Positions 16,526-22,676 of a stretch of 32,329 bases of DNA are shown here, in pieces. The notes below the pieces were generated by a model. That model saw only the letters and a list, made by a program, of their open reading frames with translations, had not been told where the DNA came from and made no database searches. The translations under genes were made by a program, and so were the position numbers. Each line of letters starts with the position of its first letter. Position 1 is the stretch's first letter. Source of the DNA: Candidatus Fermentibacterota bacterium. Its GTDB lineage: Bacteria > Fermentibacterota > Fermentibacteria > Fermentibacterales > JCC-6. The stretch is taken from NCBI GenBank assembly GCA_030592645.1, contig JAUVIR010000039.1, forward strand, positions 1 through 32,329, in the 5' to 3' direction.

Positions 16526-17029
16526 CTATGACCCCAGGATGCTGATTATTCTAAGAACAGTTTCGGCAGGGGTTATATCTGATGTATCTATGCGGTTGGG
16601 CAGTGAATTGTAGTGTTCACGCCTGTTTTCCAGGAGTTCAATGAATGCAGTATCATCCTCTGCAAGGGGTCTGTTTCTCTTCTGAGCTATTCTCCTTTTC
16701 AGGAGTTCATCGTCCGAGGCGGCAAGAGTGATCAGTATTCCCTTTTTCCTCACAGCAATGAGGTTACTGTTTTCCAGCAGGCAGCCTCCTCCAAGGGCAA
16801 CAACTACACTCTCCGGGGTTGAAAGAAGGGAAGTCAGTGCTTCTGACTCCAATCTTCTGAATCCTTCCTCTTTGAAGTGACTGAAGATATCTGGAATACT
16901 CATTGAGGCTGATGCCGCAATAATAGTATCAAGATCACGGAAAGGGAGGTTGAGTTTGAGTGCAAGGAGTTTTCCGGTGGTTGATTTCCCGGAGCAGGGA
17001 GGACCCGTTACAAAGATCGATCCGTTCAT
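16526..17029 (-). CDS. aroK: Shikimate kinase
   Basis: This protein of about 167 residues starts NGSIFVTGPPCSGKSTTGKLL with the Walker A P-loop, then RDLDTII (Asp for shikimate), FRRLESEAL, VVALGGGCLL and KRNRPLAEDD for the lid arginine, and RREHYN near the end. It phosphorylates shikimate at O3 with ATP in the chorismate pathway. I start it at ATG 17029; a longer reading to 17125 runs into the REP-like element, and ATG 17044 is also possible. No clear ribosome-binding site precedes either ATG. It is alone on the minus strand, with REP-like elements on both sides, and no other aro gene is in the window. Confidence 0.92.
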   Translation of the reverse strand: MNGSIFVTGPPCSGKSTTGKLLALKLNLPFRDLDTIIAASASMSIPDIFSHFKEEGFRRLESEALTSLLSTPESVVVALGGGCLLENSNLIAVRKKGILITLAASDDELLKRRIAQKRNRPLAEDDTAFIELLENRREHYNSLPNRIDTSDITPAETVLRIISILGS

Positions 17030-17100
17030 ATACAAGCTGTTCATTGAATGATGATAATCAAATAAACCGGCGCCGCAAGTTTCGAAGCTGAAGTCTAGTT

Positions 17101-17225
17101 GGGGTCGTATCTTGAATTTTTGCATTCAATAATTTTTTAAAAAATCAAATTCCAAAATTAAAGATACGACCCCTGTAGACGACCCCTGTAGACAAATCAA
17201 ATGCCAAAATTCAAGATACGACCCC
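17101..17225. repeat. REP-like repeat cluster, type 2
   Basis: An arm GGGGTCGTATCTTGAATTTT (17101-17120) is followed by its inverted copy ending at 17173. A second inverted copy at 17194-17225 repeats 17142-17173 with two mismatches in 32 nt. Between them GACCCCTGTAGAC occurs twice in direct tandem (17168-17180 and 17181-17193). The core contains a self-complementary A/T run. The structure is that of REP elements in head-to-tail copies, next to the 5' side of aroK. Confidence 0.7.
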
Positions 17226-17255
17226 AATACTAGCCCAATAGATGCAATCTGCCGG

Positions 17256-17284
17256 TTGACGGGTTACGAATGGTGATGTATTGA
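17256..17284 (+). promoter_or_regulatory. Possible promoter for the HU-fusion/ftsK gene string
   Basis: TTGACG (17256-17261) and TATTGA (17279-17284) are 17 nt apart. The -35 box is good and the -10 box weak, leaving a leader of about 105 nt to ATG 17397. TATACT boxes at about 17312 and 17354 lack good -35 partners but could be used instead. Confidence 0.25.
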
Positions 17285-17396
17285 GTTCAACGTCTGTTAA
17301 GATGGAGAGATAAATATACTTTGAATTCTATGATCATTATTGCTAAAGGCGTTTATACTTTATTAAGAGCGGTATTGCCGGTAATCGGAGATAATT

Positions 17397-17927
17397 ATGA
17401 CAAAGGATGAACTCGCGGGAGTAGTAGCCCAGAAGACAGGCGTGAGCAGGAAAGTTGCAAGGTCGGTACTCGCAGCCCTGCTTGATACTATTGCCGAACA
17501 GCTGTGTTCCGGAGAGATAATCTATCTGCGTGGTTTCGGCTGTTTCGAAACCAAAGAGGGAAGAAGCAGAAGAGCCCGCGATCCCCAGGGAGATGGGATA
17601 ATTGAGATCCCTCCAAGGATCAGGCCTCTCTTTCGGCCATACAACGACCTTAAGGATGCAGTGCAGGAGAAACTCGGAAAAAGGGTTACTGTGGATTTCC
17701 TCTGCCTCAGTGCCAAAAATGCTCTGACGGTATCCATTGTGGGCAAATTCAATAACTGGAATCAGGCAACCAATCCGATGCAGCGCCTTCCGGACGGAAG
17801 CTGGGTGGGCGAGATACAGGCAGTATCGGGTCAGACATTGAAATATCAGTACTGGATAGATGGTACGCTTGAAAGTGATCCGGCGTTTCCATCTGACAGT
17901 AAGGGGAATACAGTGAGGCAGATATAA
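17397..17927 (+). CDS. HU/IHF-like DNA-binding protein fused to a CBM48/AMPK-beta-type domain
   Basis: Residues 1-93 are a complete HU-type protein: two helices (KDELAGVVAQKTGVSRKVAR), then LRGFGCFETKE and an arm with RARDPQGDGIIEIPP ending in PLFRPYNDLKDAV. Residues about 97-176 form a separate beta domain with VSIVGKFNNWN (Trp 121), LPDGSWVGEI, LKYQYWIDG and DPAFPSDSKGN, the pattern of CBM48 or AMPK-beta glycogen-binding domains. Against AMPK-beta the first sugar-stacking Trp is kept, but the second Trp and the Lys appear replaced (DGTLESD, KYQYW). The domain may therefore bind another ligand or a protein. ATG 17397 follows GGAG. The stop overlaps the ftsK start by one base, so production is coupled to FtsK. 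The fusion role is unknown. Confidence 0.9.
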   Translation: MTKDELAGVVAQKTGVSRKVARSVLAALLDTIAEQLCSGEIIYLRGFGCFETKEGRSRRARDPQGDGIIEIPPRIRPLFRPYNDLKDAVQEKLGKRVTVDFLCLSAKNALTVSIVGKFNNWNQATNPMQRLPDGSWVGEIQAVSGQTLKYQYWIDGTLESDPAFPSDSKGNTVRQI

Positions 17928-20164
17928 TGGCTTCGGGAACTAAACACCGCACATCCAGAAGAGCAAAAAGGAAGAAAAAATCCCGCAGGATGCGAAATGC
18001 AATTCTGGTCGCAGTGCTTTTCCTTGGTGCAGCGCTGATCGCGGTTCTTGCTATACCGGCACCTGGTATTGCCGGCGGAATACGCCGGTTCCTTTACGCC
18101 AAACTGGGATTTCTTTCAATTCTCATACCGCTCTTTCTCTTTCAGAGCGGAGCATGGCTTCTTGATTTCAAATTCAGAAAGACCGGTTTTCGGATACTGT
18201 CCGGTATCGCAGTCACCGGCTACTTCTTTGCCGCATTGCTTGATTTTGTGTTAAGCCGGAGGATAGACGGATTCCACAACATTCCCGGGGGCAGTATCGC
18301 AGGGACTCTGGGAGACATTCTCCTTCCCCTTACTGGGGTCGCTATTACATTTCTTATTCTTTTCACAGCGTTTGTAGCTTCGCTTGTAGCTTTTACCGGC
18401 TGGGATATCGGTAGTGATTTCCAGGCAATCGCTGACAGGCTTTCTAAACTCATAAGTGGAAGCGGCGGCAGGAAGAGAAAAGAGAAGCCCCGTGCAGCTG
18501 ATGCAGATGAAACACGAGAGCCCAATGCCTGGTCGCGGAACAAGGAGGCTGAGACTGTTACGCAGATACCCTTCGGGTCGGAGAATAGTGTTAAACCCGA
18601 TATAGAGGGTGAAGCGGTTGAACAAACATCGCACAGGAAATCGAAGAGTGTGAGAAGGAGGGTCAGCCCCGAAATACTGCCGGGCGGGCAGAGACCTCAT
18701 GGGATGGCAGATACTGACGACGCGGATGGATACATTCGCCCGTCCTTTTCCTGCCTGGATATGCCAGACGAGAAGGCCCGGGTAAGGATGACTGACGAGA
18801 CGCTGGATGATCTGTCCGACCTCCTCATGGAGAAGCTGCAGGATTTCGGTATTGATTGCAAGGTCTCAGGCAGCTACCCCGGACCGGTCATAACCAGGTT
18901 CGAAGTCGAACCGGGTCCGGGTATTAAAGTAAACAAATTCGTTTCCCTTTCGGATGATCTTGCACTTGCCCTGAAGGCTAGAAGAATCCGAATCCTCGCT
19001 CCTATCCCGGGCAAGGGCGCGGTCGGTATTGAAGTGCCTAACCCTACTCCCGAAACTGTGTATCTAAGGGAGGTGATGGATGCGATAACAAACGAGAAAC
19101 TTCCTATCGCACTTGGTAAAATGATAGAGGGGAAACCATACGTTACCGATATCACAAGTATGCCCCATCTGCTTATCGCAGGAGCTACCGGATCGGGGAA
19201 GAGCGTCTGTATGCACTCAATAATAGCGTCCCTTCTTCTTACCAGAACCCCATCCCAGGTAAGACTGGCAATGATCGATCCCAAAATGCTGGAATTATCT
19301 ATTTACGAGGGGATACCGCACCTTTGGGCTCCTGTTGTTATTGAAACTGATAAGGCCACCGGACTTCTTGAGGCTCTTGTATCTGAAATGGAGAATCGTT
19401 ACAAGAGACTTTCCAGAATCGGAGTACGTTCCATCGATGAGTTCAATTCCAGGCTGACTGCGGAGACCGAAGACGAGAGGCTTCCCTATATCGTAGTGTT
19501 CATTGATGAGCTCGCGGATCTTATGCTTACCGTTTCGAGGGAGATAGAACCGGCGATATCAAGGCTGGCTAACATGGCAAGGGCAGTTGGTATTCACATG
19601 GTTCTGGCTACCCAGCGCCCGTCCGTGGATGTAATAACCGGTGTGATCAAGGCGAATTTCCCTTCGCGGATAGCTTTTAACGTGCAATCAAAAACCGATT
19701 CACGCACTATCCTTGATATGAACGGCGCTGAAAAACTTCTCGGTAAAGGGGATATGCTCTACCTTCCGACCACCTCACCCGAACCGGTCAGAGTTCACGG
19801 TTCATTTATATCAACGGAAGAAACAAGAACTATAGTCGAGCACCTGCGTGATCAGCCGGAGGTACCGTTCGAATTTGAATTTCCTGATGATGACAGCTGG
19901 AACATCGGTGATCCATTTGTGGTAAAGATAGATGATCCGCTGTTCGGTAAGGCTAAACAGGTTGTGATTCATACACAGCAGGGGTCGGTGTCGATAATCC
20001 AGAGAAGATTGAGAGTGGGGTATTCAAGAGCCGCCAGCCTTATAGACATGCTTGAACAGGCGGGTATAGTCGGACCGTTTCAGGGCAGTAAAGCCAGGGC
20101 GGTTCTGGTAACTATGGAGGAACTTCAGAAAGAGAATGAGAAAGAGGATAGCGATGAGGAGTAA
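17927..20164 (+). CDS. ftsK: DNA translocase FtsK/SpoIIIE
   Basis: This 745-residue protein has an N-terminal basic stretch and about four membrane helices (residues 20-165), a short charged linker, an alpha/beta motor with Walker A GATGSGKS at about 419-426 and Walker B FIDELADL at about 525, and a C-terminal gamma winged helix (GSVSIIQRRLRVGYSRAASLIDMLEQAGI), which reads polar DNA sequences. FtsK pumps chromosome ends through the closing septum and activates dimer resolution. The linker is short compared with E. coli FtsK. It starts within TAATG after the HU-fusion gene and overlaps the next lipoprotein gene by 11 nt. Confidence 0.96.
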   Translation: MASGTKHRTSRRAKRKKKSRRMRNAILVAVLFLGAALIAVLAIPAPGIAGGIRRFLYAKLGFLSILIPLFLFQSGAWLLDFKFRKTGFRILSGIAVTGYFFAALLDFVLSRRIDGFHNIPGGSIAGTLGDILLPLTGVAITFLILFTAFVASLVAFTGWDIGSDFQAIADRLSKLISGSGGRKRKEKPRAADADETREPNAWSRNKEAETVTQIPFGSENSVKPDIEGEAVEQTSHRKSKSVRRRVSPEILPGGQRPHGMADTDDADGYIRPSFSCLDMPDEKARVRMTDETLDDLSDLLMEKLQDFGIDCKVSGSYPGPVITRFEVEPGPGIKVNKFVSLSDDLALALKARRIRILAPIPGKGAVGIEVPNPTPETVYLREVMDAITNEKLPIALGKMIEGKPYVTDITSMPHLLIAGATGSGKSVCMHSIIASLLLTRTPSQVRLAMIDPKMLELSIYEGIPHLWAPVVIETDKATGLLEALVSEMENRYKRLSRIGVRSIDEFNSRLTAETEDERLPYIVVFIDELADLMLTVSREIEPAISRLANMARAVGIHMVLATQRPSVDVITGVIKANFPSRIAFNVQSKTDSRTILDMNGAEKLLGKGDMLYLPTTSPEPVRVHGSFISTEETRTIVEHLRDQPEVPFEFEFPDDDSWNIGDPFVVKIDDPLFGKAKQVVIHTQQGSVSIIQRRLRVGYSRAASLIDMLEQAGIVGPFQGSKARAVLVTMEELQKENEKEDSDEE

Positions 20165-20804
20165 ACTACTGTATTGCGTGCTGCCGGTTGTTATATTCGC
20201 CCTCGCATGCGGTGGCGGCAGCAAGGGTTTTGACCATGCGGGCTACTCGGTCGGTGAGGATGATCTATCCGTTTTTACAAGAGCCTGCCAGCAGTATTTC
20301 AGGGGAAGCCTGTCGAATTCAAAGGAATCTTTTAATTCTCTGATATACCGTTTTCCCGATTCCTACCTTAACGGAGATGCTCAGCTTGCAGTAAGGAGAA
20401 TAGAGTACGAACTGACCGGTGTAAGTGAGATCCCTATTGAGAATGACAGCGGCATGACTCTGATCTTCCCTTCGGTTGCGATCGTCGGCATACCATCCGT
20501 AGTTTCTACGGTTTCACAGCTTGAAATACTTATTGCGAGTACCGGTACTCCTCCCCTGACGATTGAAGATGCGGGAGCACCGGATGTGACCCTGGTTCTT
20601 TACCCCGATGGTTTCCAGGAGCAGGCGTTCACTGTTTCAGATTCTCTATCATCCTGGCTGTCATCACATTCCTCAGTGCCTGTCCAGCCGGGCGGAGACA
20701 TAATATCAACTGTCGCGCCGGGGCATTCGGGAATTGTTATTGTGATCGGAACCGATGCTATGGTCGACGGATATTTTCTTCAGAGCAATTACGTCGACCC
20801 CTGA
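20154..20804 (+). CDS. Predicted lipoprotein with helical (TPR-like) N-terminal part, unknown function
   Basis: I start at ATG 20154 because AGAGG lies 7 nt upstream; another ATG at 20136 only adds MRKRIA. A signal peptide runs to the lipobox FALAC followed by GGGSKG. Residues after the Cys form a helix pair of TPR type (FTRACQQYFRGSLSNSKESF, LIYRFPDSYLNGDAQLAVRR). The second half is rich in beta strands (GMTLIFPSVAIVGIPSVVS, DVTLVLYPDG), with no family I recognise. It overlaps the ftsK end and comes before the LolA-like gene, so a role at the cell envelope or septum is likely but not shown. Confidence 0.8.
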   Translation: MRSKLLYCVLPVVIFALACGGGSKGFDHAGYSVGEDDLSVFTRACQQYFRGSLSNSKESFNSLIYRFPDSYLNGDAQLAVRRIEYELTGVSEIPIENDSGMTLIFPSVAIVGIPSVVSTVSQLEILIASTGTPPLTIEDAGAPDVTLVLYPDGFQEQAFTVSDSLSSWLSSHSSVPVQPGGDIISTVAPGHSGIVIVIGTDAMVDGYFLQSNYVDP

Positions 20805-20827
20805 CCGTCTCATTTTAAGGAAGAAAT

Positions 20828-21418
20828 ATGCTGTACCTGTATCTGCTGCTTTCCATAACCGCTTCGTCTTCTGTAAATCCTCTTCTGGAGAAGATGAGAG
20901 ACACGGTATTCATGACCGGTTCGTTCGATCAGACAGATTCCTGGGCACTCACACTGGAAGAGGAAATATCATCTGGGACGATGTACCTGAGTCATCCAGA
21001 CCTGTTTCTGCTTTCCTATTCCGAACCTGCCGGAGCAGCAATGGGTTACGATGGATCAGTCCTGTATACGATCGAAGCCGATCTGCAGCAGGTTATCATT
21101 TATCCATCCCGGGAGCCGGGCAGCTTTCTGCATATGCTGGAAAAGTGTGCCGATACAACGGTTACTGAGACTATCCAGTTAAGCGGAGACAGTCTGACAG
21201 TTATGCTTGAAGGTGATTTCGGAGAGGGAATAAGCCGTATGAAAGTTGGTTTTACTCTTTCGGACAGTCTGCCGTTCCTTTTTTCAACAACCGATTACAA
21301 CGGCAACAGAACTGAGTACACTATCCGGGACCTGACAACCGGTGATTCCTCCCCGGAAGGTATTTTCCAGCTTATCGTACCCGATGGGTATACCATCGTA
21401 AATCCTGAGGAGTTTTAG
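20828..21418 (+). CDS. lolA: LolA-like periplasmic lipoprotein carrier
   Basis: This 196-residue protein has a short hydrophobic signal-like start (LYLYLLLSITASSS), then LLEKMRDTVFMTGSFDQT, MYLSHPDLFLLSYSEPAG, GYDGSVLYTIEADLQQVII and LIVPDGYTIVNP. These follow the LolA pattern of G-x-F-x-Q, P-x-x-F-x-x-x-Y-x-x-P, D-G-x-x-L-Y and the D-x-Q-x-x linker. LolA ferries lipoproteins from the inner membrane to LolB or the outer membrane. Adjacency to ftsK is a known arrangement in other bacteria. Sequence divergence is high, so the symbol is by family resemblance. AAGG lies a few bases before the ATG. Confidence 0.78.
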   Translation: MLYLYLLLSITASSSVNPLLEKMRDTVFMTGSFDQTDSWALTLEEEISSGTMYLSHPDLFLLSYSEPAGAAMGYDGSVLYTIEADLQQVIIYPSREPGSFLHMLEKCADTTVTETIQLSGDSLTVMLEGDFGEGISRMKVGFTLSDSLPFLFSTTDYNGNRTEYTIRDLTTGDSSPEGIFQLIVPDGYTIVNPEEF

Positions 21419-21419
21419 T

Positions 21420-22676
21420 TTGCAGAAGGCTTATCTTCTGACTCTGGGTTGTCCCAAGAACGAAGCAGATTCGGATGCTTTTGCAGGTTGTCTCAAAAAA
21501 GCAGGATGGGGGATAACCGGGAGCATTGAGAACTCTGATCTGCTTCTTATCAACACGTGCGCTTTTATTAAACCCGCGGTAGATGAATCCCTTGAAGTGA
21601 TAGGGGAGGCTCTGGATTGGAAAAATGAAAGACCGGAGAGAGTACTTATCCTCGCCGGCTGCCTGCCCGGCAGGTATCCGCAAGATGACTCGGGCGGGCT
21701 GGAGGGCTTCGATCTTGTAATTGGACCCGGGGATACAGCCCGGCTTGAGGAATACCTTCTGCTCTCTTCGGCTTCGAGTCCTGAGCCCGCCGGAGGCAGG
21801 ATATCAAGGTATCTTAAAATATCTGAGGGATGTTCCAACAACTGCTCTTACTGTACCATTCCTCTTATACGAGGCGCTAGAAGAGATAGAACCCCGGAGA
21901 GTATTCTGATGGATGCGCATCACCTTGCACAGCAGGGAGCGGTTGAGATAGGAATTGTCGGCCAGGATACCGCAAGCTGGAAATGCGGAAAGGATTCTGT
22001 ATCCTGGTTGATCTCTCAGCTTGCCGGTACGTACCCTGATATCTGGTTCAGGCTCTACTACATTCATCCAGCTTATTATCCTGATGATTTCCTTGCGCTT
22101 CTCGCGGAACATGAGAACGTTATGCCTTATGTAGATATGCCAGTGCAGCATGTTTCAGACAGGATACTGAAAAGAATGGGCAGACCCTATACCGGGGATC
22201 ACCTGAGAAAGCTTTTCGATGAATTTGAGGGTTATGACGGGATGCTGTCTGTAAGAACAACATTGATAGCGGGATATCCGGGTGAGACCGAAGAGGATTT
22301 CGATGAACTAATCGAATTCCTTTCTCAATACCGGTGCATAAGAACGATTGCCGCATTTCCATACTGGCCGGAAGAAGGGACTAGAGAGTATTCCAGACAT
22401 TCCTCTGAAGATATTCCAGACGCAGGTGCCGTTCAGTCAAGACTGTCTAGAATTGGCGACTCGGCGGATGAACATAATATTATCTGGGCTGACAGGCTGG
22501 ACGGTGAGGTAATGGATGTACTGGCGGATACACCACTGCTGGGGCACTCACGCCTTGATGCGCCGGAAGTCGATGGTGCATGCTGTTTTGATAGAAGTGT
22601 TGTCCCAGGACGTATTATCAGATGCCGGATAGCCGGAGGAACAGGATCCGACCTTAACGCTGAAGTGCTGATATGA
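21420..22676 (+). CDS. rimO: Ribosomal protein S12 methylthiotransferase RimO
   Basis: This 418-residue protein has the MTTase N-terminal domain with three cluster-binding cysteines (TLGCPKNEADSD, INTCAF, LAGCLPG). The radical-SAM domain carries CSNNCSYC after KISEGC, then VGQDTASW, PVQHVSDRILKRMGR and YPGETEEDFDEL, and a C-terminal TRAM domain follows (about residues 355-418). It adds a methylthio group to Asp in S12. TLGCPKNEAD and PVQH are closer to RimO than to MiaB. Start TTG 21420 has GAGGAG 7 nt upstream and lies one base after the lolA-like stop. Confidence 0.95.
   Translation: MQKAYLLTLGCPKNEADSDAFAGCLKKAGWGITGSIENSDLLLINTCAFIKPAVDESLEVIGEALDWKNERPERVLILAGCLPGRYPQDDSGGLEGFDLVIGPGDTARLEEYLLLSSASSPEPAGGRISRYLKISEGCSNNCSYCTIPLIRGARRDRTPESILMDAHHLAQQGAVEIGIVGQDTASWKCGKDSVSWLISQLAGTYPDIWFRLYYIHPAYYPDDFLALLAEHENVMPYVDMPVQHVSDRILKRMGRPYTGDHLRKLFDEFEGYDGMLSVRTTLIAGYPGETEEDFDELIEFLSQYRCIRTIAAFPYWPEEGTREYSRHSSEDIPDAGAVQSRLSRIGDSADEHNIIWADRLDGEVMDVLADTPLLGHSRLDAPEVDGACCFDRSVVPGRIIRCRIAGGTGSDLNAEVLI

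What the first reader, a model, noticed from the sequence alone, without database searches (positions are those of the whole stretch)
17397..17927. Nucleoid protein HU fused to a carbohydrate-binding-type (CBM48/AMPK-beta) domain, coupled to ftsK
HU and IHF are normally about 90 residues and stand alone. Here a complete HU fold is followed in the same frame by an E-set domain with FNNWN, DGSWVGEI and YQYWIDG, a pattern known from glycogen-binding proteins. I know of no characterised HU protein with this tail. The first sugar-stacking Trp is kept while other contact residues seem lost, so the domain may have been repurposed for protein contact or may sense a metabolite near the chromosome. The gene overlaps ftsK by one base.
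Basis: partly seen in the sequence, partly recalled or inferred. Interest (0 to 1): 0.78.

Follow-up and report, generated by a model that had tools for sequence, protein, structure and literature searches.

The report
HU protein fused to glycogen-binding-type fold
A DNA-bending protein of the bacterial chromosome carries a second domain of a sugar-binding type, and its gene sits next to the chromosome-pumping gene ftsK in every relative where the whole fusion gene was found, so it may be an unstudied partner of chromosome segregation in one bacterial phylum.

Summary
Window 17397-17927 encodes one 176-aa protein: an HU domain (PF00216, residues 1-89, E 2.7e-22) and a CBM48-type E-set domain (PF02922, residues 104-157), both above Pfam's cut-offs. 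A model (mean pLDDT 89.7) gives both folds; Foldseek finds HU and AMPK-beta glycogen-binding domains. It is not a joined-genes error: the fusion spans 33 of 42 phylum genomes (one has an internal stop). Relatives include Ca. Aegiribacteria and Sabulitectum. No match spanning both domains was listed for 343 genomes outside the phylum (list cut). In 33 of 33 genomes ftsK follows on the same strand. Both halves are under similar purifying selection. The AMPK-type glucan contacts are mostly absent (K126-equivalent 4 of 33, W133-equivalent 1 of 33), but 13 of 14 other E-sets of the phylum lack both too. A private signature (L131, P132, S135, E139, R174) is invariant in 33 of 33 and present at 0, 1, 0, 1, 0 of 14 controls. 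Best reading: an HU-type dimer whose E-set became a protein-docking module working with FtsK. Architecture near certain; function inferred.

The parts
17397..17675 (+). HU domain, residues 1-93; helices 3-14, 18-37, beta saddle and DNA-binding arm, C-terminal helix 83-93
   Evidence: PF00216 E 2.7e-22; PDB HU 1hue E 9.5e-15; model and Foldseek 5lvt_A E 1.0e-7, TMt 0.90; R58, R59, R61, P63, F79 invariant in 29 of 29
17676..17924 (+). CBM48/AMPK-beta-type E-set domain, residues 94-176; first strand begins at residue 96, two residues after the HU helix
   Evidence: PF02922 33.0 bits on the domain alone; GlgB 6joy E 1.2e-6; model strands 96-103 to 172-175; Foldseek 1z0m_B TMt 0.76
17787..17804 (+). 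invariant family signature L-P-D-G-S-W (residues 131-136), with M128, E139 and R174 the presumed docking face
   Evidence: 33 of 33 rows; in 14 control E-sets of the phylum L131 0, P132 1, S135 0, E139 1, R174 0
17927..20164 (+). ftsK, DNA translocase, 745 aa, with alpha, motor and gamma domains; its start overlaps the fusion's stop by one base
   Evidence: PF17854, PF01580, PF09397; adjacency in 33 of 33 genomes with the full fusion

Best explanation
The gene makes an HU-family, DNA-bending dimer with two C-terminal E-set domains (fusion shown by sequence and model; dimer and bending inferred from the HU fold). The E-set belongs to the glycogen-binding CBM48 fold family. It most likely serves as a protein-docking module through the invariant M..LPDGSW..E...R face rather than as a glucan binder. 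The gene overlaps or abuts ftsK and is probably co-transcribed and translationally coupled with it, so I propose that the partner is FtsK itself or another divisome protein. The fusion would hold or organise chromosomal DNA at the septum for translocation and segregation, much as MatP links DNA to the division machinery in E. coli (MatP recalled, not looked up). Shown: fusion, conservation, ftsK linkage, purifying selection, private invariant patch. Inferred: DNA bending, docking, identity of the partner.
For: Full-length match in 33 of 42 phylum genomes. ftsK directly follows on the same strand in 33 of 33; in 32 of 33 the stop codon to first aligned FtsK codon is -7 to +23 bp. Six genomes lack the fusion and none is a counter-example: in G008 and G010 the ftsK hit runs to the contig end, and G003, G005, G014, G034 have no ftsK match at E <= 1e-50. 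dprA is not a constant neighbour: about 1 kb upstream in the window, 16-21 kb away in G020, G022, G029, G038. dN/dS about 0.062 for HU and 0.073 for the E-set, over 22 and 21 of 78 congeneric pairs with 0 < dS < 1.5. Private invariants. HU arm residues kept. Ordinary tail-less HU genes exist besides, at least two in each of the 10 genomes from which I fetched paralogues, which I chose because two or more were listed. The fusions form one group, support 100/98.
Against: No partner was shown; gene adjacency is only suggestive. W121 (W100 of AMPK) is kept in 29 of 32 rows. The missing K126 and W133 contacts are also missing from 13 of 14 other E-sets of the phylum, among them four GlgB-like ones, so their absence does not by itself exclude glucan binding. 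Glycogen synthase-type genes are found in 38 of 42 genomes, and strong CBM48 matches outside the fusion, in frames of 188-1199 aa that I take as GlgB, in 35 of 42 (my count), so glycogen is probably present. G134 (14 of 14) and W136 (13 of 14) are common E-set residues. G002 has further FtsK-like matches on other contigs whose neighbours I did not inspect. Domain orientation in the model is not reliable (pTM 0.61).
Confidence: 0.42

Rival explanations
1. The E-set still binds glycogen or another glucan and ties the nucleoid to glycogen particles or senses storage polymer, tuning DNA compaction or FtsK expression.
For: CBM_48 above cut-off in the window protein; W121 kept in 29 of 32 rows; glycogen synthase-type genes in 38 of 42 genomes; the phylum's GlgB-like E-sets also lack the AMPK-type K126 and W133, so that site is not needed for every CBM48.
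Against: K126-equivalent K in 4 of 33, W133-equivalent W in 1 of 33, N150-equivalent N in 0 of 33 (last column uncertain); W100-equivalent is R in G009, G039 and G041, whereas it is W in 14 of 14 controls. The stand-alone E-set of G020, on the same contig within about 5 kb of GlgB-like and glycogen synthase hits, keeps W, K, W and N. AMPK contact residues are from PMC4032982 (two passages). In the window genome PF02922 matched only the fusion at E <= 0.001, though that genome is 93% complete.
Confidence: 0.2
2. The protein is a dedicated DNA-binding regulator of its own operon (fusion gene, ftsK and perhaps further genes) and does not touch FtsK protein; the E-set binds a metabolite or another regulator.
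For: First gene after a 271-bp stretch without a listed gene (17126-17396); directly upstream of ftsK in 33 of 33.
Against: HU-family proteins bind with little sequence preference (recalled). In 17000-17420 I found only a dispersed palindromic element and short repeats, and the promoter scan was no better than chance. The gene overlap suggests use of the two proteins together.
Confidence: 0.15
3. The E-set is mainly a structural add-on that drives oligomerisation or stabilises the HU dimer, making a DNA-bridging filament.
For: Only two residues lie between the HU helix and the first E-set strand in the model, so the domains may pack rigidly; both halves are similarly constrained.
Against: Does not explain the ftsK linkage; dimer or oligomer was not modelled.
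Confidence: 0.15
4. Assembly or sequencing artefact joining two genes.
For: The window genome is a draft of 73 contigs and the named relatives are metagenome assemblies.
Against: Match spanning both domains in 33 of 42 genomes, with low dN/dS.
Confidence: 0.01

Closest known systems
HU/IHF family (PF00216)
   Same: Complete HU fold; arm residues R58, R61, P63 and core F47, F50, F79 invariant
   Different: Ordinary HU ends near residue 90; here an 83-residue folded domain follows, and the gene is tied to ftsK
HU-HIG, 'HU domain fused to wHTH, Ig, or Glycine-rich motif' (PF18291)
   Same: An HU domain with a C-terminal partner, Ig-like in some; window protein scores 28.8 bits against a cut-off of 26.2, over the HU half only
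   Different: PF00216 scores far higher (79.2 bits); the match covers profile positions 33-84 of 125; the partner here is a CBM48-type E-set. The describing paper (Burroughs and others 2017, recalled) is not held, so I could not compare partner domains
CBM48 / AMPK-beta glycogen-binding domain (PF02922, PF16561)
   Same: E-set fold; FN.W, DG.W, Y..VDG and DP motifs; Foldseek matches to 1z0m, 1z0n, 4yef
   Different: AMPK contacts K126, W133 and probably N150 absent (as in most other E-sets of the phylum); private invariants L131, P132, S135, E139, R174
HU proteins with basic C-terminal tails (mycobacterial HupB, Streptomyces HupS; recalled)
   Same: HU with a C-terminal extension
   Different: Those tails are basic and unfolded (recalled); this one is a folded beta-sandwich

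Membership tests
HU/IHF family | Match to PF00216 above curated cut-off over the whole domain | tested here: met
   79.2 bits vs 22.4, residues 1-89, profile 1-89 of 90
HU/IHF family | HU fold with arm and arm-tip proline | tested here: met
   Model and Foldseek; P63 invariant in 29 of 29
HU/IHF family | DNA binding and bending as a dimer | not testable with these tools
   Needs a binding assay
CBM48 fold family | Match to PF02922 above curated cut-off | tested here: met
   30.9 bits vs 22.4 in the window protein; 29 of 29 members at E <= 0.01
AMPK-type glucan-binding site | Contact residues W100, K126, W133, N150 of AMPK-beta1 | tested here: not met
   W in 29 of 32, K in 4 of 33, W in 1 of 33, N in 0 of 33 (last column uncertain). 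Of 14 other E-sets of the phylum only the G020 stand-alone one has K and W at the middle two positions
CBM48 as a functional glucan-binding module of any kind | Binds glycogen or maltooligosaccharide | not testable with these tools
   Needs a binding assay
AMPK1_CBM (PF16561) | Match above curated cut-off | tested here: not met
   Window protein 20.3 bits (22.9 for the domain alone) vs 26.8; 28 of 29 members match at E <= 0.01, best 1.4e-7, so some relatives may pass
HU-HIG (PF18291) | Score above curated cut-off | tested here: met
   28.8 bits vs 26.2
HU-HIG (PF18291) | Match over the family profile beyond the HU core | tested here: not met
   Only profile positions 33-84 of 125, HU half

The most novel reading that the evidence does not exclude
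A whole bacterial phylum uses a chromosome-to-divisome adaptor built from an HU protein and a co-opted glycogen-binding fold, made in fixed coupling with FtsK, so that a nucleoid protein directly hands DNA to the septal translocase.
Probability: 0.3. Interest if true: 0.75.

Novelty: new variant of a known kind. Interest (0 to 1): 0.52.

Why it matters
HU is a very widespread bacterial nucleoid protein, and how general DNA-packing proteins are connected to division is poorly known. A dedicated HU paralogue with a folded partner domain, next to ftsK throughout the phylum as far as it could be read, offers a testable link between nucleoid architecture and chromosome translocation. It may also be a case of a glucan-binding fold gaining a new invariant face.

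Tried and rejected
Rejected: sequencing artefact (conserved frame). Rejected for what was searched: spread by plasmids or phages. tblastn found 1604 plasmid records, 4 of them covering 80% or more of the query, and 89 phage records, none covering 80%. I opened two plasmid hits, H1 and H5: both are ordinary HU genes of 273 bp, and the alignment runs on past their stop; H2-H4, of the same species as H1, were not opened. Long frames around other HU hits outside the phylum (L122-L127, L130, L131) were looked at by eye: the extra sequence is mainly upstream of the HU start, with no C-terminal E-set.

Glycogen-gene co-occurrence was meant as a test but is indecisive: glycogen synthase-type genes are in 38 of 42 genomes and the genomes without a GlgB-like hit are drafts. 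The loss of K126 and W133 first looked like a strong argument with 6 chosen controls; with all 14 fetched controls it is shared by 13 of them, so I lowered the main reading from 0.45 to 0.42 and raised the glucan rival from 0.17 to 0.20. The promoter scan gave no more than chance. In the first HU tree one row, G023a, was read in a wrong frame and two of the 22 paralogue loci were missed; the rebuilt tree gave the same result for the fusion group. A dimer model, a complex with FtsK, and model coordinates for surface mapping were not available to me. Literature on the architecture: searches listed no paper on it; two searches were background on the phylum and on CBM48. I saw listings and abstract starts only, plus two passages of PMC4032982.

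Full report
What is there. Window 17397-17927 (+) is one open frame of 176 codons starting with ATG. Residues 1-89 match Bac_DNA_binding (HU/IHF) with 79.2 bits and residues 104-157 match CBM_48 with 30.9 bits, both above Pfam's curated cut-offs. AMPK1_CBM matches more weakly, 20.3 bits against a cut-off of 26.8. Against solved structures the first half finds HU (1hue, E 9.5e-15) and the second half branching-enzyme GlgB (6joy, E 1.2e-6 for the domain alone). The stop codon overlaps the ftsK start by one base. FtsK has alpha, motor and gamma domains.

Structure. A first model from 6 sequences had mean pLDDT 59.4, with 65-88 per block in residues 101-176 and HU poor. Foldseek on it gave AMPK-beta, SEX4 and GlgB matches. 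A second model with 34 added HU rows had mean pLDDT 89.7 and pTM 0.61: a full HU fold, a helix ending at residue 93, and the first E-set strand starting at 96. Foldseek ranks HU first (5lvt_A, E 1.0e-7, TMt 0.90) and the first AMPK-beta entry at rank 33 (1z0m_B at rank 35, E 1.3e-4, TMt 0.76). Domain orientation is not reliable.

Who has it. Five named loci with the full fusion are titled Candidatus Aegiribacteria (2), Ca. Sabulitectum (2) and Ca. Fermentibacteria (1). NCBI places Aegiribacteria in the FCB group; that the phylum is GTDB's Fermentibacterota is recalled. Of the 42 genomes held for the phylum, 33 have a match spanning residues 1-175 or 1-176; the one in G004 has an internal TAG. 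Three more have pieces: G037 is split over two contigs, G035 is frame-shifted, G033 is cut by a contig end. Six have none: G003, G005, G008, G010, G014, G034. A wider search of 385 genomes, 343 of them outside the phylum, used E <= 1e-15, scored at most 9 candidates per genome and printed a cut list. Full fusions would rank at the top; among the rows printed for genomes outside the phylum none reached beyond residue 119, that is HU plus chance extension. Within that sensitivity the fusion is confined to the phylum.

Linkage to ftsK. In the 33 genomes with the full-length match, ftsK lies next to it on the same strand. In 32 of 33 the distance from the fusion's stop codon to the first aligned FtsK codon is -7 to +23 bp. 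In G030 FtsK aligned only from residue 267, so the distance reads 1009 bp. Seven genomes aligned from FtsK residue 1: six have the one-base overlap of the window (G000, G002, G009, G011, G012, G016) and G019 has a gap of one base. The six genomes without the fusion are not counter-examples: in G008 and G010 the ftsK hit runs to the contig end, and G003, G005, G014 and G034 have no ftsK match at E <= 1e-50. G005 is rated 98% complete, so its lack of both genes is odd; I take it as an assembly gap but did not show it. G002 has further FtsK-like matches on other contigs, not inspected. dprA is a less stable neighbour: about 1 kb away in the window and 16-21 kb away in G020, G022, G029 and G038.

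Selection and origin. Among 13 congeneric genomes (78 pairs) the ratio of mean dN to mean dS is 0.062 for HU (22 pairs with 0 < dS < 1.5) and 0.073 for the E-set (21 pairs); the other pairs were saturated or gave no estimate. Mean pairwise identity over A1 is 64% for HU and 57% for the E-set (406 pairs). In the HU tree of 62 rows the 29 fusions form one group with support 100/98, apart from 22 tail-less paralogues of the phylum and 11 of the 34 Bacteroidota-type HUs in A3 (few columns, bootstrap not settled, long branches meet, so the position of the group is unsure). The 10 genomes from which I fetched paralogues, chosen because two or more were listed, each have at least two ordinary HU genes; G040 showed no second match at E <= 1e-10. 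In those genomes the fusion is therefore an extra, specialised paralogue.

The sugar site. PMC4032982 (two passages) names W100, K126, W133 and N150 of rat AMPK-beta1 as critical contacts. In the 33 fusion E-sets the W100 position (window 121) is W in 29 of 32 and R in 3 (G009, G039, G041). The K126 position (151) is K in 4 of 33, the W133 position (158) is W in 1 of 33, and the N150 position is N in 0 of 33; that last column is uncertain, and a shifted alignment would put residue 171 there (N in 11 of 33). I first used 6 of 14 fetched control E-sets and then all 14. The controls keep W100 in 14 of 14, but K126 and W133 in only 1 of 14 each, the stand-alone E-set of G020. That one lies within about 5 kb of GlgB-like and glycogen synthase hits. 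So the absence of K126 and W133 is not special to the fusion and does not by itself show loss of glucan binding. What is special is the change of W100 in 3 rows and the private invariants: L131, P132, S135, E139 and R174 are in 33 of 33 fusions and in 0, 1, 0, 1 and 0 of 14 controls. D133 is in 4 of 14, D155 in 4, M128 in 12, W136 in 13, G134 in 14. G039 and G041 have lost the FNNW loop while keeping LPDGSW.

Mechanism. I infer an HU-type dimer that binds and bends DNA (R58, R59, R61, P63, F79 invariant in 29 of 29) and displays two E-sets whose invariant face docks a protein. In AMPK the corresponding loop, around Ser108, contacts the kinase domain (recalled), which shows that this side of the fold can be a protein interface. 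The adjacent, often overlapping ftsK gene makes FtsK or a divisome protein the first candidate. This last step is inference from gene order alone. Rivals are glucan tethering, operon regulation and self-assembly.

Known or new. HU with a C-terminal Ig-type partner exists as Pfam HU-HIG (PF18291), whose profile matches here only over the HU half. Searches joining CBM48 or isoamylase N-terminal domain with HU or nucleoid terms found no paper on this protein (related searches), in an open-licence library only. I rate it a new variant of a known kind: a new HU architecture, conserved across its phylum, with constant ftsK linkage.

Noticed in passing
window 17099-17227: Palindromic element (35-nt arms, 80% complementary; outer 28-nt arms, 96%) between the shikimate kinase-like gene and the fusion gene; AATTCAAGATACGACCCC occurs 33 times in the genome with up to 2 mismatches (28 exact), many as inverted pairs about 55 bp apart, against 0 for the reversed control: a dispersed REP- or MITE-like repeat.
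   Followed up: partly
L132, L134-L141 (genomes G030, G032, G040, G027, G037, G007, G033, G003, G001): Nine of ten small E-set proteins fetched from the phylum look by eye like lipoproteins (signal peptide then Cys) and share a D(W/M)N.WGG motif: a second, secreted use of the same fold.
   Followed up: no
L133 (G020:C65, about 25.4 kb): Stand-alone E-set protein without a signal peptide on the same contig as GlgB-like and glycogen synthase hits; the only one of 14 control E-sets with W, K, W and N at the AMPK contact positions.
   Followed up: partly
G005 (whole genome): Rated 98% complete yet no ftsK, dprA or fusion match was found at the limits used; either an assembly gap or a real loss.
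   Followed up: no
window 20136-22676: ftsK is followed by an unassigned probable lipoprotein gene, a LolA-type gene and a radical-SAM methylthiotransferase-like gene (the first and last named by eye).
   Followed up: no
L016 (G004) and L120 (G035): Copies of the fusion with an internal TAG (G004) and a frame shift (G035); sequencing error or decay not decided.
   Followed up: no
G002:C376, C298, C5: Additional FtsK-like matches beside the main ftsK of this genome, perhaps from mobile elements.
   Followed up: no
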